Below, in pieces: positions 4,560 to 51,386 of a DNA stretch of 64,000 bases. The notes below the pieces were generated by a model. That model was not told the DNA's origin and searched no databases. It saw only the letters and a program-made list of their open reading frames with translations. Source of the stretch: Pseudomonas sp. NC02 (lineage in GTDB: Bacteria; Pseudomonadota; Gammaproteobacteria; Pseudomonadales; Pseudomonadaceae). The stretch covers positions 682,001 to 746,000 of the forward strand of contig NZ_CP025624.1 of the NCBI RefSeq assembly GCF_002874965.1, in the 5' to 3' direction. Every line of letters begins with the position of its first letter. The first letter of the stretch is position 1. The position numbers and the translations under genes are program-made.

Positions 4560-7334
4560 TCAGGTGGGAGCGTGCTCAGGGCGCTGTTGGCGCTGTGCCA
4601 CCCAGTACTCCACCAGCTCGCGCAATTGCGACAACTCCACCGGCTTGGCCATGTGCCCGTCCATCCCGGCCTGGCGTGCACGCTCTTTATGTTCCGAAAG
4701 AATGTGCGCGGTGAGTGCCACGATTGGCGTACGAATCCGCTGGTTGCTGACCTCCCACGCGCGCAGTTGCTGGGTGGCGGAGAAGCCGTCGAGGATCGGC
4801 ATTTCACAGTCCATCAACACCAGGTCGTAGCGCTGGGCCTTCATTGCCTGCAGGGCTTCTTCGCCGTTGCTGGCGGTGTCGGGCTGCAGGTTGAGCTTGC
4901 CGAGCATGCCGCGAATCACCTTGGTGGAGATGCTGTTGTCCTCCGCCACCAGGATCCGGAAGTCACTCGGCACGGTCACCGGGGCCGGCGCGCTGATCGC
5001 CGGCTGGCGTGGTTGCACGGAGCCCTTGCTGCGCTGGGTCAACTCATCGGCAAGGGTGGTCTTGAGGGTATAGCCGGCCACGGGTTTGGCGAGGATGCGC
5101 TTGATCCCGCAGTTGCGCGCGATGATCTTGCTCGGCGCATTGCTGATGCCGGTGAGCATGATCAGCAGGATGTCGTGGTTCAGGCTCGGGTCTTCCTTGA
5201 TCTTCGCCGCCAGTTGCATGCCGGTCATGCCGGGCATGTTCTGGTCCAGCAGCACCACGTCGAAATAGTCCCGCAGGTGCGCCTTGGTGCGCAGCAGCGC
5301 CAGGGCTTCCTTGCCCGAAGGCACGGCGCTCACGTTCAGGCCCCAGGCCGTGCATTGCTGCACCAGCACTTTGCGGCAGGTGTCGTTGTCGTCCACCACC
5401 AGCACGCGCGCGCCCTTGAGCGGGCCGTCGAGGTCGGAGGTCGGGTGCTCCAGGCGTTCCGGATCCAGCGGCAAGGTCAGCCACAGGGTGCTGCCTTGCT
5501 GGCTGCCACTTTTGATGCCGAATTCGCCGTTCATCAACAGGATCAGCTGGCGGGCAATGACCAGGCCCAGATGGCCGCTCAGGCGGGTGGCAGAGAGGAA
5601 GTTCTTGCTGTGCAACTCGCTGTGCAGCAGGGCGTCGCGCTCGGCGGGTTCCATCGGCAGGCCGCTGTCTTGCACGGCAATGCGCAGGCGCGGTTTGCTG
5701 CTGCGCTCGTCCAGTGCGACGACGATCAGTACTTCGCCTTCATCGGTTTTTTGCAGGGCATTTTCCAGCAGGCTCAACAGTGCCTGGCGCAGCCGCGTCG
5801 GGTCGCCGCTGATCACCCGGGGTACCTGGGGCTGGATAAAGCTGATCAGCTCGACGTTCTGCTGCTCGGCCTTGGCGCGGAAAATACTCAGGCAGTCTTC
5901 GATCAGCGCGTTGAGGTCGAACTGCACATCGTCCAATTCGATCTGCCCGGATTCCAGCTTGGAGATGTCGAGAATCTCGTTGATCAGGGTGAGCAGTTCG
6001 TTGCCGGCGCTGTGGATGGTTTGCACGTAGTCGCGTTGCTTGACTGAAAGCGGGGTGCCCAGCAGCAGTTCGGTCATGCCCAGCACGCCGTTCATGGGCG
6101 TGCGAATTTCGTGGCTGATCTTCGCCAGGAATTCGGCCTTGGCGGCGATTTCGGCGTTGCTGGCCGCCAGGTCGCGGCTGAGGCTGAAGTTGTCTTCGGT
6201 GATGGCGCGCTGGCGTTCGCCCAGGGCCAGGCTCATCAACAGGCCACTGAGGCAGATAAAGCCGAGCAGGGTGATGATCAAGCCTTGTGGCGGCACCAGC
6301 GTCAGGCCCAGCAAGGCCGGGAGAATAATCAGCGTGCCGATGTTGAAGATCACCATCGCCAGCATGAACAGGCGCGCCGGGCGGTAGCCCTTTTGCCAGT
6401 GATAGGCCGAGACGAACAACATGCTCAGGCCGGCCAGCGCCACCAGGGCGTAGGTGATGATGTTCAGGGGCAAGGTGTTGACGAACAGCAGCAACAGGCC
6501 GGTCAGGACGATCAGCAGGATGTCGGCCATCAACAGCTTGTTCAGCGGATGCGGGCCCAGTGGCGCAAAGAAGCGGTAGGCAAACATCAGCCCGCACGGC
6601 GCGGTCAGCAGCAGGGCGAGGTAGGCGCCGGGGGTTTGTACCGCGTGCCAGTTCGGCAGCCACGGGCCCAGCACGTTGAGCAGCAGCGCAAGGCTCAGCA
6701 GCAACAGCAATTCGCAGGCGGCGAGCCACAGGCTGCTGCGGGAGCGATGGTAGGCGTAGCGGGTGAGGTTGTGCAGGATCAGCATCACCAGGCAACCGAA
6801 CAGCAGCCCGTAGATCAGCGTCTGGTTCTGGTTGGCCGCAGCCAGCACGGCCGGCTCAAGGGTGATGTAGGGGCGCAGCTCGTGTTCCGAGACCATGCGC
6901 AGGTACACGTCCAGCGGCTTCTGGCTTTGCGGCATCGGCAGCATGAAGTCGCTGCTGGGCAGCGGGCGCTCGGCCTGGGGCTGGCGGGTGCCGGTAGCTT
7001 CCTGCTCCACCAGGGTGTCGCCGTCGAGTACATACAGGTTCAGGTGAGACAGGTCAGGGGCGAATACCCGCAGCACTTGCTCGTGTTTGCCGGGTTGCAG
7101 CCTGAAGCGTACCCACAACGCACCGTCCGGTTGCGCGGCGGTAATCCGGTCCAGTTCGATGGGGCTGAATTGATTGATGTAGCGGGGCGAGCGGATGTCG
7201 CTCAGTTGCAGATCGGCCTGTTCATCAAGCAATACTGCCCAGCCACTGCCTTGTGCGGCGGCCTGGGCCGGGAGCAAGCAGAGCAAGGTCAGCAGACTGA
7301 CAGTGAAACCTATGGCGATCCTGAGCCAGCGCAC
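4560..7334 (-). CDS. retS: RetS-type hybrid sensor histidine kinase with two receiver domains
   Basis: The 924-residue inner-membrane protein has an N-terminal signal/membrane segment (1-27), a periplasmic 7TMR-DISMED2-like domain (about 30-165), seven membrane spans (about 170-385), a HisKA domain with His408 in [12 protein letters not shown], a HATPase region (about 500-635), and two receivers with phospho-acceptors Asp697 and Asp842. This architecture and its place beside purD match P. aeruginosa RetS, which binds GacS and blocks the Gac/Rsm switch toward biofilm growth. The ATP pocket looks degenerate: DSGLPM stands where DxGxG is usual. That fits RetS acting by protein contact rather than catalysis. 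The RetS identity is inferred from synteny and architecture. Confidence 0.9.
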
Positions 7335-7395
7335 GGCGAAATCCCTTCGTAGGTTGATGCATGGGTATAACTATGCGCGGGGCCACAAGCGTAGG

Positions 7396-7416
7396 GCAAG
7401 GGCCAGAGGCCCCTGC
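7396..7416 (-). terminator. possible hairpin after purD
   Basis: Downstream of the purD stop on the minus strand, GCAGGGGCC and GGCCCTTGC can pair over nine positions (one G-T) around a 3-base loop. There is no T-tract, so it may be only a processing or stabilising hairpin. It also lies in the retS upstream region. Confidence 0.35.
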
Positions 7417-7436
7417 CTAACCGAACGGATAGCTGT

Positions 7437-8729
7437 TTACTGACTTTCGCCACGCTCACGGGCAATGGCGCGGTAGCCAATGTCGGTGCGGTAGAAGCAG
7501 CCTTTCCAGTCGATCTTCGCCGCCAGCTTGTAAGCCTGTTGCTGAGCGGCATCTACGCTGCTGCCCATGGCGGTTGCGCACAGTACGCGACCACCGGCGG
7601 TGACGACCTTGCCATCCTTGAGCGCGGTGCCCGCGTGGAACACCTTGCCTTCCAGCGTAGCAGCCGCGTCCAGACCTTCAATCACATCGCCCTTGGCGTA
7701 GTCGGCCGGGTAGCCGCCGGCGGCCAGCACGATGCCGACGCTCGGGCGCGGGTCCCACTGGGCTTCGACCTTGTCCAGGGCCTGGGCCAGCGCAGCTTCA
7801 ACCAACAGCACCAGGCTCGATTGCAGGCGCAGCATCACCGGTTGGGTTTCCGGGTCGCCGAAGCGGCAGTTGAACTCGATGACTTTCGGATTGCCGGCCT
7901 TGTCGATCATCAAGCCGGCGTACAGGAAACCGGTGTATACATTGCCTTCATCGGCCATGCCGCGCACGGTTGGCCAGATGACCAGGTCCATCACGCGCTT
8001 GTGCACTTCGGCGGTAACCACTGGCGCCGGGGAGTAGGCGCCCATGCCGCCGGTGTTCGGGCCGCTGTCGCCGTCACCCACACGTTTGTGGTCCTGGCTG
8101 GTGGCCATCGGCAGTACGTTCTTGCCGTCGACCATCACGATGAAGCTGGCTTCTTCGCCGTCGAGGAACTCTTCGATCACCACGCGCGAACCGGCTTCAC
8201 CGAAAGCGTTGCCGGCGAGCATGTCGCGCACGGCGTCTTCGGCTTCAGCCAGGGTCATTGCGACGATCACGCCTTTACCGGCGGCCAGGCCGTCGGCCTT
8301 GATCACGATCGGTGCACCGACTTCACGCAGGTAGGCCAGGGCCGGCTCGATCTCGGTGAAGTTCTGGTAGTCGGCGGTCGGGATCTTGTGGCGCGCCAGG
8401 AAATCCTTGGTGAAGGCTTTCGAGCCTTCCAGCTGGGCAGCGCCGGCGGTTGGGCCGAAGCAGTCCAGGCCGCGGCTGCGGAACAGGTCCACAACGCCAG
8501 CTACCAAGGGCACTTCCGGGCCGACGATGGTCAGGGAAACGTTTTTCTCGGCAAAGTCCGCCAGTTGCTCAAGGGCCAACACGTCGATGGCGACGTTTTC
8601 GCACTTGGCTTCAATGGCGGTACCGGCGTTGCCGGGGGCGACGAAAACTTTCTGGACACGTGGGTCCTGGGCAACTTTCCAGGCCAGGGCGTGTTCACGG
8701 CCACCGCTGCCAATGATCAAAACATTCAT
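7437..8729 (-). CDS. purD: phosphoribosylamine-glycine ligase
   Basis: The 430-residue enzyme joins glycine to 5-phosphoribosylamine with ATP to make GAR, the second step of purine synthesis. The start is ATG 8729, giving the family N-terminus MNVLIIGSGGREHALAWK. The open frame continues upstream to 8933, but that part is translated repeat sequence. ATP-grasp hallmarks include VIKADGLAAGKGVIVA, GPNTGGMGAYSPAP and IEFNCRFGDPETQ. The gene lies downstream of purH on the same strand, separated by an array of four hairpins. Confidence 0.97.
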   Translation of the reverse strand: MNVLIIGSGGREHALAWKVAQDPRVQKVFVAPGNAGTAIEAKCENVAIDVLALEQLADFAEKNVSLTIVGPEVPLVAGVVDLFRSRGLDCFGPTAGAAQLEGSKAFTKDFLARHKIPTADYQNFTEIEPALAYLREVGAPIVIKADGLAAGKGVIVAMTLAEAEDAVRDMLAGNAFGEAGSRVVIEEFLDGEEASFIVMVDGKNVLPMATSQDHKRVGDGDSGPNTGGMGAYSPAPVVTAEVHKRVMDLVIWPTVRGMADEGNVYTGFLYAGLMIDKAGNPKVIEFNCRFGDPETQPVMLRLQSSLVLLVEAALAQALDKVEAQWDPRPSVGIVLAAGGYPADYAKGDVIEGLDAAATLEGKVFHAGTALKDGKVVTAGGRVLCATAMGSSVDAAQQQAYKLAAKIDWKGCFYRTDIGYRAIARERGESQ

Positions 8730-8762
8730 TTCAAAAAACCTCGGATGACGCTGAATTCTGAC

Positions 8763-8863
8763 CGTTCCCACGCTCTGCGTGGGAATGCCTCTTGTGACGC
8801 TCTGCGTCACGCTTTGGGACGCGGAGCGTCCCGGGCTGCATTCCCACGCAGAGCGTGGGAACG
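8763..8863. repeat. cluster of four REP-like hairpins between purH and purD
   Basis: Four short hairpins lie in tandem. H1 is TTCCCACGC-TCT-GCGTGGGAA (8765-8785), H2 is GTGACGC-TCT-GCGTCAC (about 8794-8810), H3 is GGGACGC-GGA-GCGTCCC (about 8816-8832), and H4 is TTCCCACGC-AGA-GCGTGGGAA (about 8841-8861). H1 and H4 are inverted copies of one another. This family differs from the GTGGGAGC-type REP pairs elsewhere in the window. The array sits inside the purH-purD transcription unit and ends 5-8 bp from the purH stop. Confidence 0.85.
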
Positions 8864-8868
8864 AGCAA

Positions 8869-10476
8869 TCAGTGACGGAAGTGGCGCATGCCGGTGAAGA
8901 CCATGGCAATGCCGGCTTCATCAGCCGCTGCAATCACTTCTGCGTCACGCATCGAGCCGCCCGGTTGGATCACGGCGGTAACACCGGCTTTCGCGGCGTT
9001 GTCCAGGCCATCACGGAACGGGAAGAATGCGTCGGACGCCATCACCGAACCCTGCACCTGCAAGCCGGCATGTTCTGCCTTGATCGCAGCAATACGTGCC
9101 GAATTCACGCGGCTCATCTGGCCCGCGCCGACACCGATGGTCTGGCGGTTCTTGGCGTAGACGATGGCGTTGGATTTAACGTACTTGGCGACTTTCCAGG
9201 CGAAGATCAGGTCGTTGATTTCCTGTTCGGTCGGGGCGCGCTTGGTCACCACTTTCAGATCGGCGCTGCCGATCATGCCGATGTCACGGCTCTGTACCAG
9301 CAAGCCGCCGTTGACGCGCTTGTAGTCCCAGGCAGCGGCACGCTCGGCCGACCACTCGCCGCACGCCAGCAGGCGCACATTGGCCTTGGCGGCAACGATG
9401 GCGCGAGCCTCTTCACTGACGGATGGCGCGATGATCACTTCAACGAACTGACGCTCGACGATCGCCTTGGCGGTCTCGGCGTCCAGCTCACGGTTGAAGG
9501 CGATGATGCCGCCGAAGGCCGACTCGGTGTCGGTGGCGTAGGCCAGTTCGTAGGCCTGGCGGATACCGCCTTCAGCGTCCGGGCTCACGGCCACGCCGCA
9601 CGGGTTGGCGTGCTTGACGATCACGCAGGCTGGCTTGACGAAGCTCTTCACACATTCCAGCGCGGCGTCGGTGTCGGCCACGTTGTTGTACGACAGCTCT
9701 TTGCCTTGCAGTTGGGTCGCGGTGGCGATGCCGACTTCAGCAGGCTTGGCCTCGACGTAGAACGCCGCGCTCTGGTGCGGGTTCTCGCCGTAGCGCATTT
9801 CCTGGGCCTTGATGAACTGGCTGTTGAAGGTGCGCGGGAACTGGCTGCGACCTTCTGTGCTGAGGGTTTCAGCGGCCTGGTTCACGGTGCCCATGTAGTT
9901 GGCGATCATGCCGTCGTAGGCAGCGGTGTGTTCGAAGGCCTTGAGCATCAGGTCGAAGCGCTGGGCGTAGGTCAGGCCGCCGGCTTTCAGGCTTTCCAGT
10001 ACGTTGGCGTAGTCGCTGGCGTTCACCACGATGGCCACGTCTTTGTGGTTCTTGGCTGCCGAGCGAACCATGGTCGGGCCGCCGATATCGATGTTTTCGA
10101 TGGCGGTCGGCAGGTCGCAGCCTGGCTTGTTGATGGTGGCTTCGAACGGGTACAGGTTAACGGCCACCAGGTCGATCGGCTTGATGCCGTGCTCGCTCAT
10201 GATGGCGTCGTCGATACCGCGACGACCGAGGATCCCGCCGTGGATTTTCGGGTGCAGGGTCTTGACCCGACCGTCCATCATTTCTGCGAAACCGGTGTAG
10301 TCCGCCACTTCCACTGCGGCCACGCCGTTGTCCTGCAGCAGTTTGAAGGTCCCGCCGGTGGAGAGAATCTCCACGCCCAGGGCTTCCAGCTCCCGGGCAA
10401 ATTCGAGGATCCCGGTCTTGTCGGAGACACTGATCAAGGCACGGCGGATCGGCAGGCGGGTAGTCTGGTCGGTCAT
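8869..10476 (-). CDS. purH: bifunctional AICAR transformylase / IMP cyclohydrolase
   Basis: The 535-residue protein carries out the last two steps of IMP synthesis: formylation of AICAR and ring closure. I chose ATG 10476 ([20 protein letters not shown]), which matches the family start; an upstream ATG at 10509 adds 11 residues. The N-terminal cyclohydrolase/MGS part shows [13 protein letters not shown] and [16 protein letters not shown], and the C-terminal transformylase part shows [13 protein letters not shown] and [12 protein letters not shown]. It lies 81 bp downstream of fis, with a terminator-like hairpin in the gap, and is followed by purD. Confidence 0.97.
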
Positions 10477-10507
10477 TTCAATTTCCATCAAAAGCAAAGG
10501 AGTCAGC

Positions 10508-10540
10508 AAAAAAGGCGTCCGTTTTTACGCGGGCGCCTTT
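10508..10540 (-). terminator. Rho-independent terminator between fis and purH
   Basis: On the minus strand, AAAGGCG...CGCCTTT arms (10534-10540 and 10511-10517), extended by three or four further pairs, are followed directly by a run of Ts (complement of As at 10508-10513). It begins 18 bp after the fis stop and ends about 31 bp before the purH start. Confidence 0.82.
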
Positions 10541-10557
10541 CTGGTTTGATTGAATGC

Positions 10558-10878
10558 TTACAGCAAATCGTACTGCTTGAGTTTCTTGCGCAGCGTGCCA
10601 CGGTTCAGACCGAGCAGCTCACTGGCCTTGGTCTGGTTGCCCTTGACGTAGTTCATCACGCTTTCGAGCAACGGCGCTTCGACTTCGGAGAGCACCAGGT
10701 TGTACACGTCCGTGACGGCAGCGCCCTCAAGGTGGGCGAAATAATTGTGCAGCGCCTTCTCGACACTCCCGCGAAGGGTCTGGCCTTCTTCGCTCGGCGT
10801 GTTGAGGTGCTGTTTCAAATTGACGTTGTCGCTCACGGGTGTTGTTCCACTCACTAAAGTCTCGGTCATCATCGTCAT
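10558..10878 (-). CDS. fis: DNA-binding protein Fis
   Basis: The 106-residue nucleoid protein binds and bends DNA and modulates transcription of stable RNA and many other genes. The C-terminal helix-turn-helix [20 protein letters not shown] followed by [13 protein letters not shown] is diagnostic. The N-terminus carries the usual variable extension. The start at 10878 overlaps the dusB stop by 4 bp, giving the dusB-fis operon known across gammaproteobacteria. A terminator follows it. Confidence 0.97.
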
Positions 10879-42232: not shown

Positions 42233-43419
42233 TTGGTCCTCAGAAGGCGGTTGAGCCAATTGGTGGAGGGTTTTTCCAGGCCCTCGGAGCGTTTTGCCAG
42301 GCGCTCACCCAAGCCGCGCAACGTCTGTGTCAGGGCTTCCCGTGGGGCCAGGGAGAACAGGGTCTGGGCCTGGTTCTTGGCACTCAGGCGCACTTCCGGG
42401 CTCCAGGGCAGGACGGCGATTACCTCCAGCCCGAAGCTATTGCCCAGTGCCTCCGAGTCCGGGGCGGCCCCCTTTAGGTAGCGGTCTACCAGCAGGCGGG
42501 CATGGTCGAGTTTCATGCCTTTTTCCCGCCACAGGTTGAGTACGGCCAGGTTGCGGCGGCAGTCCGGCACGCTTTGGTCGGTGCACCACAGCAGTTTGTC
42601 GCAATGGCTGACAAAGGTGCGCAAGGCTTCGCTGTCGGGTTGGCCGGTCAGGTTCACCACGATGTGCTGGAAGTGCTGGCGCAGGGCGCTGAGCAACATG
42701 TACAGCTCGGCCGCGCTGGTACGCTCCAGGGGCTCGTCGTTGTTGTGGTAGGCGAGGATGCGCAGACCGGCTTCGGCGGTGGTGAAGGCGCTGTTGATCA
42801 GGGTTGAGTCCAGGCGCCGCAAGTGACGCAGGGCGTCGCCGAAATGAAAAGAACTCTCCAGCCCCAGCAGTGCGAGGCTGTCAGCGAGTGGCAGGCCCAG
42901 GTCGAGCAACAGCGTTTGCTGCCCGCTTTTTTGTACCACCAGCGCCAGGTGGCTGGCGATCAGCGCGCCGTCGGCATTGCCTTGGGTGCCGTAGAGCACG
43001 GTCAGCCCGCCCAAATGGGTATTCGGGGTGACCGCCGGCAAGCGTTTGCTCAGGCGCCGAACCAGGCCGGCAACCTCACTGGAGCGCGAGCCGTAGGCCA
43101 CGAAATCCCGTGCGCCGGCGCGCATCGCGTTCAGTACAAGCTGGTTGTCCATGCCATCGCCCAAGGCCACAATGGCAAGCATCGGCTTGGCTTCCAGGGC
43201 ACCTTCGATCAGGGCGCACTGGGTGGTGACGTGTTCCCGGTCCAGGCCGATGAACACCAGGTTGGCGAACGTCACGTCTACCAGTGCCAACAGTTCGTCG
43301 AGGCTGCCGGCACCGGCGCTGACCACTTGCCCCAGGGGCGCGAGCGCGCCCTGAAGCCATTCCAGATCCGTGGTGTTGCGGGTAATTGCCAAAAAGGTCT
43401 GGCTCAGGCTCTCACTCAT
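42229..43419 (-). CDS. tadZ: TadZ, pilus localisation ATPase-like protein
   Basis: The 396-residue protein has a receiver-like N-terminal domain (about 1-125, without a clear phospho-Asp motif) and a MinD/ParA-like C-terminal domain. The position of the deviant Walker A (about 141-160) reads LYGTQGNADGALIASHL instead of KGGxGKT, so the nucleotide-binding lysines are absent. TadZ proteins mark the cell pole for the Tad machine. It is coupled to rcpA and tadA by 4-bp overlaps on both sides. Confidence 0.9.
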   Translation of the reverse strand: MSESLSQTFLAITRNTTDLEWLQGALAPLGQVVSAGAGSLDELLALVDVTFANLVFIGLDREHVTTQCALIEGALEAKPMLAIVALGDGMDNQLVLNAMRAGARDFVAYGSRSSEVAGLVRRLSKRLPAVTPNTHLGGLTVLYGTQGNADGALIASHLALVVQKSGQQTLLLDLGLPLADSLALLGLESSFHFGDALRHLRRLDSTLINSAFTTAEAGLRILAYHNNDEPLERTSAAELYMLLSALRQHFQHIVVNLTGQPDSEALRTFVSHCDKLLWCTDQSVPDCRRNLAVLNLWREKGMKLDHARLLVDRYLKGAAPDSEALGNSFGLEVIAVLPWSPEVRLSAKNQAQTLFSLAPREALTQTLRGLGERLAKRSEGLEKPSTNWLNRLLRTK

Positions 43420-44639
43420 TCGGACAGTCCACTGCGGCGGTCGAAATTGCCGTTTTCGAGGAAGTACAGGCGGTACCAGTTCGGGTCGTAATTGCGCAGC
43501 TTTTCCCCAGGCAACGAGGGCAACTGGGCGTTGGCGGCCAGCGGCTGTACCAGGTGCGGGGTGACGATCATCAGCAGCTCTTTTTCCTGGCGGTTGATGC
43601 TGGAGTCGCGAAAGAATGCACCGAGGATCGGGATGTCACCCAGGCCCGGGAATTTGCTGACGCTGGAGGTGTTGTTGGTGCTGATCAGGCCGCTGATCAC
43701 GAAGCTTTCGCCGTCGGCCAGGGAGATGCTGGTGTCGGTGCGCCGGATGGTCAGCGCCGGCACGGAGATCCCCTGGATGTTGACCGCGTTGGTGTAGTCC
43801 AGCTCACTGACCTCTGGCGCGACCTTCAGGGAAATCCGCCCATGGTCGATGACGGTCGGGGTCAGGGTCAGGCGAATACCGAACTCTTTGTATTCGATGG
43901 AGATGGTGTTGCTGCCGCTGCTGGGCACCGGGATCGGTACTTCACCACCGGCGAGGAAGGTCGCACTTTGGCCACTGAGCGCCACCAGGCTCGGCCGGGC
44001 CAGGGTGTAGGCAAAGCCGCTGCTTTCCAGGGCGTTGATCATGGCCGAGACACGGCCGCCGCCAAAGCCGATGTTGAAGGTGTCGTTGTTCACCGGGAGC
44101 CCACGGAATCCTGTGGCCGCCGCATTGGCAACATTGTTCGGGGCGCCGAACAGAAAGTTGCCGCCCCGGCCAAAGATCGAGGTACTGGCCTCCTTGAGTT
44201 TGGTGCGGCTCACTTCCACAAAGCGGATGTCGGTTTGCACCTGGCTGGGCAGGGTCGGGTCATCGGACGGCGACAGGGCCAGGCTGGTCAGGGCCGACGT
44301 GGCCTTGCCCTTGACGAACACCATGCTTTGGCGCGGGCTGCTGGAGCAGGCCGTCCAGACCATCAGGCTGGTGGTGCCCGAGGCGATGCCGGTGAGCAGG
44401 AACGCCTGGTTGCCGTTGACCTGCACATCGGCCACTTTCGGATCGCCAATGGCCAGCCGCGTAATCGGCACCGGCGACTGGATAGCCTGTTGAGCGCCTT
44501 CACCCACCTCCAGCACTGCCGGCAGCTGGCCCAGGCCCGTGCAGTTGCCGGGTGCTGCCAGTGCAACGCCGACAGGCAGGCTCAGGGTGAGAAGTGCCCA
44601 GAAAATTCGCGAAAAAGACCACACGAAACGACTGCTCAT
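43416..44639 (-). CDS. rcpA: RcpA, outer-membrane secretin of the Tad system
   Basis: The 407-residue protein has a signal peptide (FWALLTLSLPVGVALA), a BON/secretin N-terminal domain (ITRLAIGDPKVADVQVNGNQ, GTTSLMVW) and a C-terminal secretin domain (GEVPIPVPSS, EYKEFGIRLTLTPTV, FPGLGDIPILGAFFRDSSIN, LLMIVTPHLV). It should form the outer-membrane pore for the Flp pilus. It lies 20 bp after rcpC and overlaps tadZ by 4 bp. Confidence 0.95.
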   Translation of the reverse strand: MSSRFVWSFSRIFWALLTLSLPVGVALAAPGNCTGLGQLPAVLEVGEGAQQAIQSPVPITRLAIGDPKVADVQVNGNQAFLLTGIASGTTSLMVWTACSSSPRQSMVFVKGKATSALTSLALSPSDDPTLPSQVQTDIRFVEVSRTKLKEASTSIFGRGGNFLFGAPNNVANAAATGFRGLPVNNDTFNIGFGGGRVSAMINALESSGFAYTLARPSLVALSGQSATFLAGGEVPIPVPSSGSNTISIEYKEFGIRLTLTPTVIDHGRISLKVAPEVSELDYTNAVNIQGISVPALTIRRTDTSISLADGESFVISGLISTNNTSSVSKFPGLGDIPILGAFFRDSSINRQEKELLMIVTPHLVQPLAANAQLPSLPGEKLRNYDPNWYRLYFLENGNFDRRSGLSE

Positions 44640-44659
44640 TCAAGGCATCCTTAGCTCTT

Positions 44660-45595
44660 TCAGGGCGTTTGTTGGGTAACCTGATTGCCACGTATTACTT
44701 CGACGCCTGAACGCCTTGGCGCACCATTGCCGGCGGGACTCAGGCCGTTGACCGGCGCTGTACTGAAGGCCAGCTGGTTGAACTGGTAGAGCTCGCGCCG
44801 GGTGTTTTCCAGGTGGGTCGCGGACTCCGTTTCACCGGCCCAGTATTGGCTCAGCAGTTGTTCGTCGGCACTGCGTACAGCCAGGCGCAGTACGCCGGAC
44901 TGGGCTGCGAGCATCAGCCGGCTCAGGAGCTCCTCCGGTACGGCGAGGAGTACCGTGCGCGCGCTGGCGCGACTCTGCTGCGCCTTGAGTTTTTCGTCGG
45001 GGGTGGTCGGTGGCACGGAGCCGGGCGTGCCGTCGTTGGTCAGCCCCAGTTGATCGCCGACGCCCAGCAGGCGCAAGGCGGGCACCACGATTTGTGCGGA
45101 CTGCTGCGGGTTGCTGGCTTCCTGGCGCAGGAAGAGCAGGACGTCCACATAGTCCCCCGGGGAGAGTTGCCCGCTGGCGCCGATCACTTCATCCACGGCG
45201 ACGGCAAGCGCGCGTTCGTTAGGGCGGATCATTCGCGCCACGGTGCCGCCGGAGTTGAAGCTCTCCTCGGTCAGCCAGGTCCCGGCCGACAGCGGCCGCC
45301 ACGGGATCTTGCCCACGGCCTGGTCGAGGCTGGTGAGGCTGCCGGCGGGAACCGTGCGCAGTTTTTCCAGGGTCAGGTCGGCGGCGGTGAGCGCAACAAA
45401 AGGTGCAACGTCATGGGCCAGCACCACCACGGGTTGGCGTGTCTGGTCTTCGGCTACGGGTTGCACGACTTCAGGCGTTTGGGGCACGGGCGGTGCGACA
45501 GGGGCAGGGCGGCTGAGTACCAGGCCCCAGTAGCCTGCAATCAGTGCACCTACCAACAGCAGCCCGGCGAGGATCAAGCTAATCCGACTGTTCAT
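44660..45595 (-). CDS. rcpC: RcpC/CpaB, periplasmic pilus-assembly protein
   Basis: The 311-residue protein starts at ATG 45595 (MNSRISLILAGLLLVGALIA), an uncleaved-type membrane anchor. A SAF domain follows (VVVLAHDVAPFVALTAADLT, ERALAVAVDEVIGASGQLSP, GDYVDVLLFL), typical of CpaB/RcpC. It probably contacts peptidoglycan and the secretin. It is first in the eight-gene minus-strand operon; the 315-bp region upstream is shared with flp. Confidence 0.93.
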   Translation of the reverse strand: MNSRISLILAGLLLVGALIAGYWGLVLSRPAPVAPPVPQTPEVVQPVAEDQTRQPVVVLAHDVAPFVALTAADLTLEKLRTVPAGSLTSLDQAVGKIPWRPLSAGTWLTEESFNSGGTVARMIRPNERALAVAVDEVIGASGQLSPGDYVDVLLFLRQEASNPQQSAQIVVPALRLLGVGDQLGLTNDGTPGSVPPTTPDEKLKAQQSRASARTVLLAVPEELLSRLMLAAQSGVLRLAVRSADEQLLSQYWAGETESATHLENTRRELYQFNQLAFSTAPVNGLSPAGNGAPRRSGVEVIRGNQVTQQTP

Positions 45596-45910
45596 GAAGG
45601 CTCTCCCTTTCCTGCTGCATCCACTGCTATTCCCACTAATGCTTGCGTATCCAGATCGCTTCAAGCTTCTAACTATTTCGCTATTTGAAGGTAGTTCAGC
45701 TAAGACAAAACGCCATTACCGGGCGAAAAATATCTCCAGAAACCTCTGCGAAAGTTGGATTTTTGGCGTCAGCCGGCCGACTAATACTTTGTGATTAATC
45801 AGTTCTTACAGTTGTTGGTCTGGGGTTTGTTGACAATGCTCTAGTGGCACACCGAAATCATTTTTGTGATGCCGCGATACCAGCGCCGTGGGCGCAAAGG
45901 AGAAGTCATT
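45596..45910. promoter_or_regulatory. divergent promoter region between rcpC and flp
   Basis: No gene is seen in these 315 bp. Possible sites are an imperfect palindrome GTCAGCCGGCCGAC (45768-45781), TAATACTTTG (45782-45791), the palindrome TGATTAATCA (45792-45801), and TTGACA (45830-45835) as a candidate -35 for flp with no good -10. AAAGGAG at about 45896-45902 is the flp ribosome-binding site. The cluster of sites 110-145 bp before flp is where a PprB-type activator might bind. Confidence 0.5.
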
Positions 45911-46102
45911 ATGTTCCTTGATCTTATTCGCATGGGTTTCATCAAAGTCCAGATTTTTTTCTATTCCAAAGAGGGCGCATCGGGTATCGAATACGCACTG
46001 GTTGCGGCGATGGTCGCTGTGGCGCTGGCTGCTTTTATTACACCTATCCGGACGGCCATAACCGGCGTCTTCAACTCGATACAGGCCGGCATTCATACCT
46101 GA
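45911..46102 (+). CDS. flp: Flp type IVb prepilin
   Basis: The 63-residue prepilin starts at ATG 45911. The leader ends in KEG, with predicted cleavage after Gly22, giving mature ASGIEYALVAA...; Glu and Tyr at mature positions 5 and 6 are the Flp signature. A hydrophobic helix (LVAAMVAVALAAFI) and a short tail follow. It is the major pilus subunit, cut by FppA and extruded through RcpA. It is divergent from rcpC and followed by a receiver protein. Confidence 0.95.
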   Translation: MFLDLIRMGFIKVQIFFYSKEGASGIEYALVAAMVAVALAAFITPIRTAITGVFNSIQAGIHT

Positions 46103-46574: not shown

Positions 46575-46686
46575 GAGCGAGCTTGTGTGGGAGCGGGCTT
46601 GCTCGCGAAAAACGTCAACGATAACGCGGGCAGTCTGGTTCCCCGCGTTGTCTGGACGTTCTTCGCGAGCAAGCTCGCTCCCACAG
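46571..46686. repeat. REP pair with a nested extra half-arm
   Basis: GTAGGAGCGAGCTTG is followed at once by TGTGGGAGCGGGCTTGCTCG, so a second REP start is fused to a truncated first one. The element ends with CGCGAGCAAGCTCGCTCCCACA. It overlaps the stop of the receiver gene and abuts the TpsB gene. Confidence 0.85.
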
Positions 46687-46689
46687 GGT

Positions 46690-48375
46690 TCAGAGTTGGT
46701 AGCTGAAACTCAGGGTATACCGTGGCCGCCGATTGAAGCTGTCCAGGGCGATATCCGACATTGGCTTGGCCGCTTCCAGCGCGATGTTGTAGTACTTGTT
46801 ATCCCCGAAGCGCAGGCCCACTGCTGCCGATGACATGTTGTTGCCCTTGGCCGGCAGTTCGTTGAACCAGGTCTTGGCCTTGTCGAGCACCACGTACGGC
46901 TGCAGGATTTTTACCCACTCGCCACTGCGGTTGAAGCTGTAGTTGACCTCATACGCCACGCCCCAGCCCTTGTCGCCCGAGCCCTGGTCATCCGGGTAAC
47001 CACGCCCGAAATTCTGCCCGCCGAACGTCGCGCGTTCGCTGTCGGGCAGGGTGTCGTTGCTCCAGTAGAAGGCACCCGATGCCACGCCTTGCCAGTTGTC
47101 GAAGAACTTGTCGCTCTGTACGCCCGAGACGCGCAGGCGGAAGAAGTCGATGTCGGGTTTTATACCCTCGAAGTCACTCCGGGTGCTGGCGCCCAGGCCG
47201 TCGATGCCCTGGTACAGGCCGGCGCTGAGAATGCGCAGTTGGCGCGTGTCGGATTTGCGCCAGTCACCTTCGAACGCCAGGGCGCGCAGGTTGGTTTCCA
47301 GGTCGAAACGTTGCGGGAAACCCACCAGTTGATAACGGGTGGTCTGGTCCACGGCATAGAGTCGCGTGCCCAGGGTCAATGACTCGGTAGGGGAGGCAAT
47401 CAGCGGATGGCTGAGGCCGACGGAGTAGCGGTCAACCTCCTGGTGTGGCTTGAGTTCAAAACCGCCGTCCAGCTGCACGTTGCTGCGCGGGTCGGCGCGG
47501 TAGCGCTCGGCGTTGACCACCAGTTGAGTGCCCTCGGCATTCACGAACTGGCTGTAGCCCAGGCGGTAGTAGTGCTCCTTGTCCTCGCCGGGCGGGAACA
47601 GGCCGCTGACGCTCAGTTGTTCGCCCATGGATGTCTGGGAATTGCTGGTGCCGGTGATCAGGGCTTGCAGGCCGCCACGGCTGTCGTCCGTCATGCTCAT
47701 GCTGCTGGTGAAGGGTTTGCGCGAGGCCTGGATCTGCATGCGCGTGCCGCCATCGGTGGTGCCCGGCGGCGGTACTTGCGCCTGCAGCGTTACACCTGGA
47801 ATGCGGCCCATCAAGGTGGTGTAGCGTTCGAAGGTCTTGCGGGTCAGCGGGCGCTCGGCCAGCAGCTTGGCCGCCAGTTTGTCGACGTAGGCCGAGACCG
47901 AGCCAATGTCGCCCTGCACGTTGTAATCCTTGATGTAGCCCTCCACCAGCACCACGCGCACCAGGCCGTTTTCGAAGCGCTGGTCGGGCAGGTACGCGTA
48001 GGACAACAGATAGCCGTCCTGCTGGTAGCGGCGGGTGATGCCGCGGGTGGCTTCGATCAGTTGTGCCAGGTTGGTTTCATGGCCAATCAGCGGTTCGAAA
48101 ACCTTGGCCACATCCTGAAGCGGGTAGATCGTCCCACCGTCGATTTGCAGCTTGCGGATGGTCACTTTGGTGTCCATCAACAATGGCTGGCCCTGGGTTG
48201 CCGCCGGCTCGGGCAGTTGGGTCTGTGGGGTGACCGGGCGATAGGCATCGGCGGGGAGGTTGGGTACCGGCAGGTTGCGAATGGTGTCGTTGCTGTTGAG
48301 GTAGCTGGGCAGGGTCTCGGCATGGACGCTGGCAGCAATGAGGGTGAGCAGAAACAAAGGCGTCAAGGCGCGCAT
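46690..48375 (-). CDS. TpsB/FhaC/ShlB-type outer-membrane transporter
   Basis: The 561-residue protein starts at ATG 48375 with GGAG six bases upstream. It has a signal peptide (FLLTLIAASVHA), a Pro-rich linker, POTRA domains (about 65-205, RKLQIDGGTIYPLQDVAKVF, TRRYQQDGYLLSYAYLPDQR) and a C-terminal barrel ending in a phenylalanine/aromatic-rich strand (RYTLSFSYQL). FGGQNFGRGYPDDQ matches the VRGY loop-6 motif. TpsB proteins export large TpsA substrates. No TpsA gene with a haemagglutination-type domain is adjacent; the next gene upstream is the repeat lipoprotein. Confidence 0.9.
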   Translation of the reverse strand: MRALTPLFLLTLIAASVHAETLPSYLNSNDTIRNLPVPNLPADAYRPVTPQTQLPEPAATQGQPLLMDTKVTIRKLQIDGGTIYPLQDVAKVFEPLIGHETNLAQLIEATRGITRRYQQDGYLLSYAYLPDQRFENGLVRVVLVEGYIKDYNVQGDIGSVSAYVDKLAAKLLAERPLTRKTFERYTTLMGRIPGVTLQAQVPPPGTTDGGTRMQIQASRKPFTSSMSMTDDSRGGLQALITGTSNSQTSMGEQLSVSGLFPPGEDKEHYYRLGYSQFVNAEGTQLVVNAERYRADPRSNVQLDGGFELKPHQEVDRYSVGLSHPLIASPTESLTLGTRLYAVDQTTRYQLVGFPQRFDLETNLRALAFEGDWRKSDTRQLRILSAGLYQGIDGLGASTRSDFEGIKPDIDFFRLRVSGVQSDKFFDNWQGVASGAFYWSNDTLPDSERATFGGQNFGRGYPDDQGSGDKGWGVAYEVNYSFNRSGEWVKILQPYVVLDKAKTWFNELPAKGNNMSSAAVGLRFGDNKYYNIALEAAKPMSDIALDSFNRRPRYTLSFSYQL

Positions 48376-48464
48376 AGGACACTCCATGGTCAAAACTGCT
48401 GCAGCGTTTTCGCTAGGCCCGCCGGGTTCTGGGACACGGTTCGCAAAGCCATTCATTGGCCAAT

Positions 48465-48498
48465 AAAAAAGACGAGAGACTCGTTGGAATCTCTCGTC
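48465..48498 (-). terminator. strong terminator after the repeat lipoprotein gene
   Basis: On the minus strand GACGAGAGA and TCTCTCGTC make a perfect 9-bp stem around a 10-base loop, followed by TTTTTTATT. It is about 53 bp after the lipoprotein stop and separates that gene from the transporter gene. Confidence 0.9.
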
Positions 48499-48550
48499 TC
48501 AACCAAGCGTAGGCGCTGTAGGGGAGGCCGTCTAATGGCCAGGTGCAATT

Positions 48551-50245
48551 CTATTTTTTGCCGGTCAGCCCACCGAGCAGACCTCCCAGGCCGCCGCCTG
48601 TGTTTGCATTTGCATTGGCAGTGCCCGTAGCGGAGGCACCGGCACCCACGTTCAAGCCACCGAGCAGACCGCCACCGTTACTGCTGGTGCCGCCGGTTAC
48701 CAGGCCACCCACCGAGCCGACGGTATTGCCGACGGCATTCAGGGTACCGCCCACAGCGTTAGTCACCGGATTGGCATTCGCCGCCGTCAGGTTGGTGCCC
48801 AGGCTGCTGACTGCGCCGCCGACCTGGGTAACCAGACCATTCACCGGTGCGCCGATACCGGTGCTGGTGCCGATGTTTTGCGTCAGATTGGCAACACCCG
48901 AGGTCACTGGGTTGAGTGCGGTGCCGACATTGGTCGCCAGGCCTGCAACGGGAGCCGTGGCTGCAGTGTTGGCCACGCCATTGCCACCGATCAGGGTGCC
49001 GAGCGACGCGACGGTGTTACCCACTTGGCCACCGGTTACACCGGCTGCACTGACAGTGCCGTTGGTGTTGCCGGCATTCAGGCCGTTGCCGACGTTGGCG
49101 ACAAGACCGCCGACGAGTTCAGGCAGGCCCGATTGAGGGGTCGTGGTGGCCGGGTTGACGTAACCGCTCGACTTATCAAGGGTGGTGCCAACGCCAGTCA
49201 ACACGCCACCGACGAGTGTCCCGACAGGGTTGCCTGCGCCGCCGGCGCTGGCCACCTGGCCGCCAAGGCCGGTGACAGTGGAGCCGACTTTATCCAGTAC
49301 GCCGCCGACCGGGTTGCCCAGGCCTGTTTTATTGCCCAGGTTGCCGGTGGTGTTTTCCACCAGGGAGACCACCGGTACCAATACGCTTTTACCCACCGTA
49401 TTGGTCACGCTGCCCAATGGCCCGGTGGTGCTGGCAGTGCTCAAGGTATCGCCGAGCATGGTGACGGCCTGGCCGACCTGATCAACCACGCCACCTGCCG
49501 CACCGCCAACGCCACCGGTCAAGCCGCCGACTACGGGAATGCCGCCGAGTGTGGTGCCCAGGGATTTGCCGGTGTTGGAAACGCCGGTGCCCAGGTCGGC
49601 AACGCCATCGGCCACACCGGCAACGGTTGTGCCCACGGAGTTGCTATTGGTACCCAGCGTGCCCAGGCCGTTGCTCAAGCCGCCGCCGATACTGTTGACG
49701 GCGGTGCCTGTCGCGGTGACCAGCCCGCCGGCAGTGGTGCCGACAATGGGAACCGTGGTCAGGGTTGTGCCCAGGTTACCTACCGTGGTGCCGACATTAC
49801 CGACGACACCGCCCACAGCGCCTACTACCTGGCCGGTGACCAGGGGAGTGGTCGAGCCGGTGCCGCCGCCAGTACCACCGCCAGTGCCGCCACCGCCGGT
49901 ACCTCCACCAGTGCCGCCACCGCCGGTACCTCCACCAGTACCTCCACCAGTGCCTCCGCCGGTGCCTCCACCAGTGCCGCCGCCGGTGCCACCACCGGTA
50001 CCTCCACCAGTGCCGCCGCCGGTGCCACCACCGGTACCTCCATCAGTGCCGCCGCCAGTGCCACCACCGGTACCGCCGCCGGTGCCTCCACCTGTTCCAC
50101 CGCCAGTACCGCCGCCAGCATCCGGAGAGGAGGCTGCGACGCTACTGTGATGACCACCACCACCGCTGCTGCAGCCTCCGAGGCTTACTGCCAGAATCAG
50201 GGCCAGCGCGGTACTTGCTTTCCACAACACGACTTGAGTTTTCAT
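48551..50245 (-). CDS. Gly-rich repeat lipoprotein (collagen-like repeat type)
   Basis: The 564-residue protein has a lipoprotein signal (ALILAVSLGGCSSGGG, Cys25). A tract of about twenty GGGT units follows (about 43-133), then a long region rich in Gly, Val, Thr, Asn and Leu with irregular VGN..G..LGT motifs, ending in GGLGGLLGGLTGKK. It has almost no charged or aromatic residues. Similar Pseudomonas proteins are usually annotated as collagen-like triple-helix repeat proteins, but GGGT is not a Gly-X-Y repeat. A surface or matrix role is inferred from composition and from the neighbouring Flp locus and TpsB gene. The opposite-strand frames through it are shadows. Confidence 0.82.
   Translation of the reverse strand: MKTQVVLWKASTALALILAVSLGGCSSGGGGHHSSVAASSPDAGGGTGGGTGGGTGGGTGGGTGGGTDGGTGGGTGGGTGGGTGGGTGGGTGGGTGGGTGGGTGGGTGGGGTGGGTGGGGTGGGTGGGTGSTTPLVTGQVVGAVGGVVGNVGTTVGNLGTTLTTVPIVGTTAGGLVTATGTAVNSIGGGLSNGLGTLGTNSNSVGTTVAGVADGVADLGTGVSNTGKSLGTTLGGIPVVGGLTGGVGGAAGGVVDQVGQAVTMLGDTLSTASTTGPLGSVTNTVGKSVLVPVVSLVENTTGNLGNKTGLGNPVGGVLDKVGSTVTGLGGQVASAGGAGNPVGTLVGGVLTGVGTTLDKSSGYVNPATTTPQSGLPELVGGLVANVGNGLNAGNTNGTVSAAGVTGGQVGNTVASLGTLIGGNGVANTAATAPVAGLATNVGTALNPVTSGVANLTQNIGTSTGIGAPVNGLVTQVGGAVSSLGTNLTAANANPVTNAVGGTLNAVGNTVGSVGGLVTGGTSSNGGGLLGGLNVGAGASATGTANANANTGGGLGGLLGGLTGKK
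49857..50127 (-). repeat. in-frame 12-bp repeat tract (GGGT units)
   Basis: The DNA consists of about twenty degenerate 12-bp units coding GGGT, with two places where an extra GGN codon is inserted and one Asp. Because the units are multiples of three bases, slippage would change length without breaking the frame. Confidence 0.9.
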
Positions 50246-50368
50246 GATTGAGTTCCTTGCACCTGGTACAGCCTTTGTTGTTTTCGAAGTTCGCTGTTTC
50301 TAGGGGCAGCGATACATTCGTCCGTTATGGCTATAACAGTCCCGGGTGCGCGCTCTCGCAACGCTCAA

Positions 50369-50426
50369 CTTGGTATTAACGATTTATATACACGAAGAGT
50401 TAGTTTGCTTAACGACTAATACCAAG
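50369..50426. promoter_or_regulatory. 10-bp inverted repeat upstream of the repeat lipoprotein
   Basis: CTTGGTATTA (50369-50378) and TAATACCAAG (50417-50426) are perfect inverse copies 38 bp apart, 124 to 181 bp upstream of the lipoprotein start. The proximal arm reads TAATACCAAG on the coding strand, close to TAATACTTTG upstream of flp in the same orientation and at a similar distance. Confidence 0.5.
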
Positions 50427-50486
50427 GGTGTAGAAGGCGGCGGTGTTTAAGTTGTAAGTTTATTAAAATCAATGAGTTGATAAGAG

Positions 50487-50510
50487 TAGCGAGCTATCGA
50501 TAGCTCGCTA
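50487..50510. terminator. perfect 24-bp palindrome between the MaoC and lipoprotein genes
   Basis: The half-site TAGCGAGCTATC is followed directly by its reverse complement. It is 27 bp beyond the MaoC stop. It may end that transcript as a hairpin, although no T-tract follows on the minus strand, or it may be a protein-binding site. The surrounding 290-bp interval is AT-rich and has no gene. Confidence 0.5.
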
Positions 50511-50537
50511 TAACTTAAGATGTATATATACAATTTA

Positions 50538-51386
50538 TCAGGCGATGGGCCGCCAGCGGCCGACCATGTGTTCAATGTCCCCGGCGCCTTTAAGTTGCAG
50601 CTCACCGCTGGAGCCGGGGGCGCTCGTGAACAACGTTACCTCACTGGGCAAGCGCACCGGCTTTTTAAACTCGACATCTATCTCGAGATTGGCGGCTGGC
50701 AAATGCTCACTCAGTGCCGCCAGTGTGCGGGCCTTGTTCCACAGCCCATGGGCGATGGCCTGGGGAAAGCCGAATAACCTGGCAGTGAGGGCGCTCAAGT
50801 GAATCGGGTTGTAGTCGCCGGACACCCGGGCGTAGCGGCGGCCAACATCGGCGGGGGCTTTCCAGCGGGTCAGTTCGGCGACAGCGGCAGGGGGTTGCAG
50901 CGGGTTGTCCGTTGCTGCGCCATCGAGTTTCACACCGCGACAGAGCATCCGGCTTTGCGCTTCCCACAGTAGCCCCAGTGAATCTTCGACCGTGGTCACA
51001 ATATCGAATGTCGCGCCCTTGGCATGGGGCTGCAAATTCTGCGCGTAAACGCCGACCGTCAAGTCACTCACACCGCCCAACGGGCGCAGGATGCGGATCC
51101 GGTTGCTCAGGTGGATCAATCCCAGCAGCGGGAAAGGAAACGCCTTGTCAGTGAGCAATTGCATCTGCAGGCCGAATGCCAGGATATGCGGATAGGTGGC
51201 CGGCAAGACCGGGCTGTCGGCAAACCCGCAGACCTTGCGATAGGCCGCGACTTCCCTGGGGTTCACACTGACCCGGCAGCGCAACCCTTGCTCGGGCAGC
51301 GTGGTGCCGGTGATCTTGCGCTTGAGTGCCGCGCGCCAATACAGCGGCGGCAGGAACGGGGTGCTGCCTAATGTGTGCCACTCCAT
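50538..51386 (-). CDS. MaoC-like enoyl hydratase
   Basis: The 282-residue protein starts at ATG 51386, 2 bp after the fabG-like gene stop. The C-terminal half carries the hydratase-2 motif (SGDYNPIHLSALTARLFGFP, then AIAHGLW), with Asp and His of the active site. The N-terminal half is a second, degenerate hot-dog domain. It should hydrate or dehydrate acyl-CoA or acyl-ACP. Its place in an operon with a ketoacyl reductase and opposite a thiolase suggests a small fatty-acyl elongation or degradation set. Confidence 0.88.
   Translation of the reverse strand: MEWHTLGSTPFLPPLYWRAALKRKITGTTLPEQGLRCRVSVNPREVAAYRKVCGFADSPVLPATYPHILAFGLQMQLLTDKAFPFPLLGLIHLSNRIRILRPLGGVSDLTVGVYAQNLQPHAKGATFDIVTTVEDSLGLLWEAQSRMLCRGVKLDGAATDNPLQPPAAVAELTRWKAPADVGRRYARVSGDYNPIHLSALTARLFGFPQAIAHGLWNKARTLAALSEHLPAANLEIDVEFKKPVRLPSEVTLFTSAPGSSGELQLKGAGDIEHMVGRWRPIA

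What the first reader, a model, noticed from the sequence alone, without database searches (positions are those of the whole stretch)
46690..50245. TpsB transporter with no TpsA, beside a Gly-rich repeat lipoprotein and the Flp pilus locus
The sequence shows a full FhaC-type transporter (signal, POTRA, barrel, GRGYP loop) but no haemagglutination-type TpsA substrate in the window. The gene directly upstream on the same strand codes for a lipoprotein with a long GGGT tract and a Val/Gly/Thr-rich body. TpsB substrates normally carry an N-terminal TPS domain and are not lipoproteins, so a partnership would be a new kind of two-partner secretion. A strong terminator between the genes argues against a simple operon.
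Basis: partly seen in the sequence, partly recalled or inferred. Interest (0 to 1): 0.72.

Follow-up and report, generated by a model that had tools for sequence, protein, structure and literature searches.

The report
Secretion transporter paired with stalked lipoprotein
A two-partner secretion transporter that should move a haemagglutinin-like protein is instead linked, across distantly related bacteria, to a helical lipoprotein on a flexible stalk, which suggests an undescribed way of putting lipoproteins on the cell surface.

Summary
46690-48456(-) encodes a CdiB/FhaC-type transporter (TpsB) and 48551-50245(-) a lipoprotein with a GGGT stalk; no TPS-domain protein lies in the window. The lipoprotein is Pfam Collagen_mid (PF15984) without a collagen repeat; its core is predicted all-helical. 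Of 298 same-genus genomes, 109 have PF15984 over its cut-off and all 109 have this TpsB. The order lipoprotein-then-TpsB recurs in 65 of 80 Burkholderiales loci and in two other families, one with no RcpC pilus gene found in its genome. Thirteen of 14 Pandoraea keep the lipoproteins on other contigs; the 14th has none, and its TpsB has an internal stop. The 'strong terminator' between the genes is conserved (27 of 30), as in an attenuated operon. Against: 23 of 132 TpsB genomes have no such lipoprotein. Best reading: a two-partner-like system whose client is a helical, stalked lipoprotein. Coupling is well supported; export by the TpsB is inferred. New variant of a known kind.

The parts
46690..48456 (-). 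TpsB (CdiB/FhaC-type Omp85 transporter), 588 aa from the first ATG; true start probably an internal Met at 48387 or 48375
47938..48165 (-). POTRA 1 of TpsB (residues 98-173)
   Evidence: PF08479 residues 99-173; model
47719..47937 (-). POTRA 2 of TpsB (residues 174-246), beta-alpha-alpha-beta-beta in the model
   Evidence: model only; no Pfam hit over the cut-off
46693..47712 (-). 16-strand barrel of TpsB (residues 249-588; strands counted by me)
   Evidence: model; PF03865 residues 410-550
46993..47010 (-). loop L6 motif FGRGYP (residues 483-488)
48469..48500 (-). intrinsic terminator between lipoprotein and TpsB; a like hairpin is present in 27 of 30 intergenic stretches, with differing stem sequence
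48551..50245 (-). Collagen_mid (PF15984) lipoprotein, 564 aa
50171..50245 (-). lipoprotein signal peptide with lipobox (LGGC, Cys25; Ser at +2)
   Evidence: the +2 sorting rule is recalled
49853..50170 (-). Gly/Thr-rich stalk (residues 26-131); 18-181 aa across 133 lipoproteins measured
49148..49852 (-). core (residues 132-366), predicted helical; the best conserved part of the family
48554..49147 (-). C-terminal low-complexity part of the lipoprotein, predicted mostly disordered
43416..46102 (.). neighbouring Flp/Tad genes (secretin 43416-44639 -, CpaB-like 44660-45664 -, Flp pilin 45866-46102 +); context, not always near the pair

Best explanation
The two genes form a two-partner-like system. 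The lipoprotein is made in excess: a conserved terminator after its gene lets only a fraction of transcripts read on into the transporter gene (inferred from sequence). The lipoprotein is exported by Sec, lipidated at Cys25 and sorted to the outer membrane (inferred from the lipobox). The TpsB then threads the stalk, helical core and tail through its barrel, so that the core is displayed outside on a variable Gly/Thr stalk while the lipid anchor stays in the membrane (inferred; side of the anchor unknown). The displayed core acts as an adhesin or autoaggregation factor, often used together with Flp pili (inferred). Shown here: both genes, their domains, their tight linkage and its breadth, the terminator, the predicted folds.
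For: Same-genus genomes: 109 of 109 PF15984 genomes have the TpsB; 106 of the 110 PF15984 places taken from the printed list are directly upstream of it on the same strand, the other 4 being 2 contig breaks and 2 second copies. Class survey: PF15984 over cut-off in 3 of 369 genomes; the same 3 hold the only TpsB matches better than 1e-60. Burkholderiales: 65 of 80 loci have it just upstream. The pair stands away from Flp genes in two further families: G457 has no RcpC hit in its genome, G660 has one 35 kb away. Pandoraea: no lipoprotein near the TpsB, yet 13 of 14 genomes hold 2-4 PF15984 matches on other contigs; the exception's TpsB has an internal stop at about residue 189, the other 13 have none. 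Conserved terminator 27 of 30, against 0 of 1200 shuffles. TpsB fold is CdiB/FhaC. A relative, BCAL1524, was found in outer-membrane vesicles and its loss lowers autoaggregation (PMC10303873, passages).
Against: No interaction or export was tested. Known TpsB clients fold as beta-helices; this core is predicted helical. The lipoprotein has no TPS domain for the POTRAs to bind. 23 of 132 TpsB genomes have no PF15984 protein by two searches, so TpsB can do without it. Most pairs also lie near Flp genes, so Flp could be the real bond. One genome with an open lipoprotein frame, G119, has a stop inside TpsB at about residue 380. P. horticolens also lacks the kind of RcpC gene seen beside the lipoproteins of its relatives, so its TpsB decay could follow either loss, or the stop could be a sequencing error.
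Confidence: 0.58

Rival explanations
1. The lipoprotein is a helper and not the cargo: it stays in the periplasm or at the outer membrane, and TpsB exports or assembles something else, for instance a part of the Flp pilus or an unlinked protein.
For: The predicted periplasmic lipoprotein BcpO of some Burkholderia CDI systems is an accessory of a TpsB system (PMC5422565, passages). RcpA is in 120 of 132 TpsB genomes. In the three Pandoraea clusters read, the lipoproteins sit by Flp/Tad-type genes. 23 genomes keep TpsB alone.
Against: The pair exists without RcpC in G156, G159 and G457, the first two also without RcpA, and with RcpA megabases away in G061 and G108. Several lipoproteins per TpsB and a stalk of 18-181 aa look like cargo. 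BCAL1524 is found in vesicles and promotes autoaggregation.
Confidence: 0.22
2. No functional link: both genes are old neighbours carried along with the Flp locus.
For: Related genomes share the arrangement by descent, so counts within the genus are not independent. TpsB survives without the lipoprotein in one clade.
Against: The pair holds with and without Flp beside it, in five families. In Pandoraea the two lie on different contigs but still co-occur. The intergenic terminator is kept.
Confidence: 0.12
3. TpsB serves the unlinked 4197-aa TPS-domain protein of the same genome.
For: Present in 23 of 50 TpsB genomes and 3 of 30 without (p=0.001).
Against: 27 of these 50 TpsB genomes lack it. 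It lies beside GspE/GspF genes in 4 of 4 loci read, three of them from TpsB-less genomes.
Confidence: 0.04

Closest known systems
Two-partner secretion (type Vb): FhaB/FhaC, CdiA/CdiB
   Same: TpsB with two POTRAs and a 16-strand barrel; nearest solved folds CdiB and FhaC; a client-type gene next to it
   Different: No TPS domain, lipoprotein instead of a soluble exoprotein, helical core instead of beta-helix
Burkholderia cenocepacia Bcc-CLPs BCAL1523/BCAL1524 with BCAL1522
   Same: PF15984 lipoproteins on the same strand as a 1686-bp outer-membrane gene, next to the flp operon; the paper suggests an operon (PMC10224339, passages and section 3.2)
   Different: That paper does not hold the word two-partner and lists BCAL1522 as heme-utilisation related. 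That BCAL1522 is this TpsB is inferred from order and size; its sequence was not fetched
BcpO of Burkholderia bcpAIOB
   Same: A lipoprotein gene inside a TpsB locus
   Different: There a TpsA-type protein (BcpA) is the cargo and the lipoprotein an accessory
Slam surface-lipoprotein transporters
   Same: Proposed job: moving a lipoprotein to the surface (recalled)
   Different: Slam is another kind of barrel without POTRAs (recalled); this one is ShlB-type
Bacterial collagen-like proteins
   Same: Pfam name Collagen_mid
   Different: No long Gly-X-Y tract in this protein; its stalk repeat has a period of 4 (GGGT)

Membership tests
Two-partner secretion (type Vb) | Transporter with two POTRAs and a 16-strand barrel | tested here: met
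   the second POTRA and the strand count rest on the model
Two-partner secretion (type Vb) | Loop L6 V/I-R-G-F/Y motif (consensus recalled) | tested here: inconclusive
   R-G-Y kept here, in 20 of the 21 other same-genus rows (L069 not matched by the pattern), in G457 and in G660; Arg replaced by Leu, Gln or Ala in all 38 Burkholderiales rows of A4
Two-partner secretion (type Vb) | Linked TpsA with N-terminal TPS domain (PF05860) | tested here: not met
   lipoprotein has no PF05860 hit at E<=1; none in the window
Two-partner secretion (type Vb) | Client predicted as beta-helix | tested here: not met
   helical core; block pLDDT 77-93 over residues 141-240, 46-90 over 241-370
Two-partner secretion (type Vb) | Client gene linked to the transporter gene | tested here: met
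   not linked in Pandoraea
Two-partner secretion (type Vb) | Transport of the client demonstrated | not testable with these tools
   needs a deletion and surface assays
Collagen_mid (PF15984) | Profile match over the curated cut-off | tested here: met
   150.9 bits against 31.1
Bacterial collagens | Long Gly-X-Y repeat | tested here: not met
   stalk is GGGT, period 4

The most novel reading that the evidence does not exclude
A new branch of type V secretion in which a TpsB displays outer-membrane lipoproteins with helical, glycine-patterned cores on variable stalks, one transporter serving one to several lipoproteins, linked or unlinked, in Gamma- and Betaproteobacteria.
Probability: 0.5. Interest if true: 0.85.

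Novelty: new variant of a known kind. Interest (0 to 1): 0.71.

Why it matters
How lipoproteins reach the outer face of Gram-negative cells is known for only a few routes (recalled). A TpsB route would add one found here in five families of Gamma- and Betaproteobacteria, could explain how the 'collagen-like' adhesins of Burkholderia get out, and would show that TpsB barrels can take clients without a TPS domain or beta-helix. A single gene deletion tests it.

Tried and rejected
Collagen reading: rejected, no Gly-X-Y tract.

TpsA elsewhere as client: tested and judged unlikely.

Flp as the only bond: weakened by G156, G159, G457 and by distant Flp loci.

Hidden diverged lipoprotein in the 23 TpsB-only genomes: none found with a 21-row core alignment at E<=0.01, while the three positive controls rang. 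In 20 of 23 such loci an alpha2-macroglobulin-like gene and in 21 of 23 a PbpC-like gene lies nearby (names recalled from the sequences); G127 and G190 have neither in the stretch fetched.

G028 and G096: PF15984 hits of 3.8e-4 and 4.8e-4, the two weakest of the 111; the tally has 109 over the cut-off, so I take these two as the ones below it; the core alignment finds nothing in either. still counts both.

In-frame stops: one search counts one in each of 7 of 132 TpsB matches. Aligned again, the stop lies inside the gene only in G119; in G157 it is opposite residue 16, before the likely start; in G159, G116, G291, G244 and G256 none lies within the aligned stretch.

Homologue search in 5.8 billion proteins: only 4 hits, 7990 candidates being scored. 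Fold search of the lipoprotein: best E=0.058. No promoter-like site in 46600-50600. Lipoprotein core against plasmids: 4 records, all Cupriavidus, all among the TpsB hits. Lipobox pattern in the Burkholderiales ORFs: found in 97 of 108; the other 11 include ORFs that begin inside the protein, and some of the 97 matches may fall on the wrong Cys.

Literature: none of the listings shows a paper that I could see joining the two families; of those papers I saw passages of PMC10303873, PMC10224339 (plus section 3.2), PMC5422565, PMC7996558 and PMC12724388, the rest as listings only. Preprints and most subscription papers are not held.
Full report
WHAT IS THERE. The window lies in a complete 6.89-Mb genome at 682001-746000. 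On the minus strand, a lipoprotein gene (48551-50245) is followed by a TpsB gene (46690-48456). TpsB has a ShlB-type POTRA and a ShlB barrel match, and a profile of its family finds CdiB, TpsB4 and FhaC in the PDB. Its model has two POTRAs and, by my count of long strands, 16 barrel strands, nearest CdiB and FhaC. The lipoprotein has a lipobox at Cys25, a GGGT stalk and a PF15984 core. Its model (mean pLDDT 58, pTM 0.45) shows long helices from 135 to 363, with block pLDDT 77-93 over residues 141-240 and 46-90 over 241-370. Stalk and most of the tail are disordered. No solved fold resembles it.

NO TPS PARTNER. The genome has two TPS-domain genes and three ShlB matches. One TPS gene follows its own TpsB, an ordinary pair. 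The other, 4197 aa, stands beside type II secretion genes. A third TpsB stands beside a DUF2341/laminin-G/ExbB gene.

LINKAGE WITHIN THE GENUS. Of 298 genomes, PF15984 is in 111 at E<=0.001, 109 over its cut-off. The TpsB is in 132 at E<=1e-60, once in each. I transcribed both lists: 110 of the 111 have TpsB (p=8e-58), the exception being G028, which I take for a sub-cut-off hit. With the cut-off applied it is 109 of 109 (p=6e-59). The place list printed was cut; of the 110 places I took from it (108 genomes), 106 lie upstream of TpsB on the same strand, 413-1097 bp from domain to TpsB. These genomes are related, so the p-values overstate independence.

THE EXCEPTIONS. 23 genomes have TpsB and no PF15984 protein by the family search (one, G096, only a sub-cut-off hit) or by a core alignment. 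In 20 of 23 an alpha2-macroglobulin-like and in 21 of 23 a PbpC-like gene lies near the TpsB. In the three read at length (G015, G190, G110) the Flp locus with TpsB lies the other way round relative to its flanks. Ten of the 23 lack RcpA. In a 53-row tree the 11 such rows used form one clade inside the lipoprotein-linked same-genus rows (100/100): probably one loss, not 23.

LINKAGE BEYOND THE GENUS. In 369 genomes drawn across the class, PF15984 is over cut-off in three: this genome, G457 and G660. The same three are the only ones with a TpsB match better than 1e-60; the next best is 7e-45. In both outsiders the order is lipoprotein then TpsB on one strand. By tblastn of the TpsB against plasmids, the best hits (32-36% identity) are Cupriavidus and Caballeronia megaplasmids, again with a lipoprotein match upstream in the four I read (L112, L113, L114, L117). 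A scan of genome contigs with a Cupriavidus/Caballeronia alignment found 167 relatives, of which the best 80 were kept. 65 of the 80 have a Collagen_mid protein just upstream on the same strand, by an HMM built from 31 seeds. The 15 misses are one 3.2-kb contig and 14 Pandoraea.

A TEST. If the link is functional, the 14 Pandoraea should have the lipoproteins elsewhere. 13 of 14 do, two to four matches each, on contigs other than that of the TpsB; in the three clusters read they lie by Flp/Tad-type genes. The 14th, Pandoraea horticolens, has none, and it alone of the 14 has a stop inside its TpsB, opposite residue 189 of the window's protein. It also lacks the kind of RcpC gene found beside the lipoproteins in relatives, having only the other kind. 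So either loss could explain the decay, and a single stop could be a sequencing error. A counter-example exists: G119, with an open lipoprotein frame, has a stop opposite residue 380 of its TpsB.

IS IT THE FLP PILUS? RcpA is in 193 of 298 genomes, with 120 of the 132 TpsB genomes among them. Of 90 genomes with both positions transcribed, 79 have TpsB and RcpA within 20 kb, one 22 kb apart, two megabases apart and eight on different contigs. Lipoprotein and TpsB persist without RcpC in G156, G159 and G457, the first two also without RcpA. Flp is a frequent companion, not a requirement.

THE TERMINATOR. The hairpin at 48469-48500 is real. Of 30 intergenic stretches (29 other same-genus loci and the window), 27 hold a stem of at least 10 with a T tail, against 0 of 1200 shuffles. 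Stem sequences differ while pairing is kept, for example AGACGAGAGA, GCGGAAGA and CGCCGAACCC arms. This fits an operon in which the cargo is made in excess of its transporter (inference). Burkholderiales loci were not part of this count.

STALK. In 133 lipoproteins the stretch between Cys and core is 18-181 residues (median 58), with a median 96% of small or polar residues. Fast-changing length with a conserved core is what a display stalk would show (inference).

L6. The loop motif is RGY in this genus (21 of 22 rows), G457 and G660; in all 38 Burkholderiales rows of A4 the Arg is Leu, Gln or Ala. This transporter branch may work differently there.

PUBLISHED KIN. PMC10224339 (passages and section 3.2) lists bcal1520, bcal1522, bcal1523 and bcal1524 as a possible operon beside flp and calls the PF15984 proteins a new class of adhesins. 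PMC10303873 (passages) reports BCAL1524 in outer-membrane vesicles, lower autoaggregation without it and healthier wax-moth larvae with the deletion. Neither text holds 'two-partner'.

VERDICT. Coupling of the two genes: about 0.85. TpsB exporting the lipoprotein: about 0.6.

Noticed in passing
L096 (own genome C1:4130000-4147000), 8620-10218 and 6796-8595: A second TpsB without TpsA beside it, directly upstream of a DUF2341/laminin-G/MotA-ExbB fusion and a TonB-like gene (name recalled).
   Followed up: partly
L095 5621-18214 (own genome, 2.72 Mb): A 4197-aa TPS-domain protein beside GspE/GspF in 4 of 4 loci read; perhaps secreted by a type II system.
   Followed up: partly
L066-L088: In the TpsB-only genomes the TpsB lies near alpha2-macroglobulin-like (20 of 23) and PbpC-like (21 of 23) genes, and in three read at length the Flp locus is inverted relative to its flanks; its client there is unknown.
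   Followed up: partly
L167, TpsB match 9097-10695: Pandoraea horticolens TpsB has an internal stop and the genome has no PF15984 protein.
   Followed up: yes
G119 TpsB (L043): A stop inside TpsB while the lipoprotein frame is open.
   Followed up: partly
L113 and L117, TpsB about 9001-10600: TpsB matches fall in two overlapping pieces in the Cupriavidus campinensis and sp. EM10 records; frameshift or sequencing error.
   Followed up: no
L118-L155, minus-strand Collagen_mid ORFs: Most Cupriavidus and Ralstonia loci carry a second lipoprotein on the other strand between Flp and the pair.
   Followed up: partly
L172-L197 downstream of TpsB: A gene of one family follows TpsB in 13 of 31 Burkholderiales loci compared; the one scanned is DUF2147.
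   Followed up: partly
L115 8923-10635: Azospirillum TpsB beside an adenylate/guanylate cyclase-domain gene, with no TpsA annotated in the stretch.
   Followed up: no
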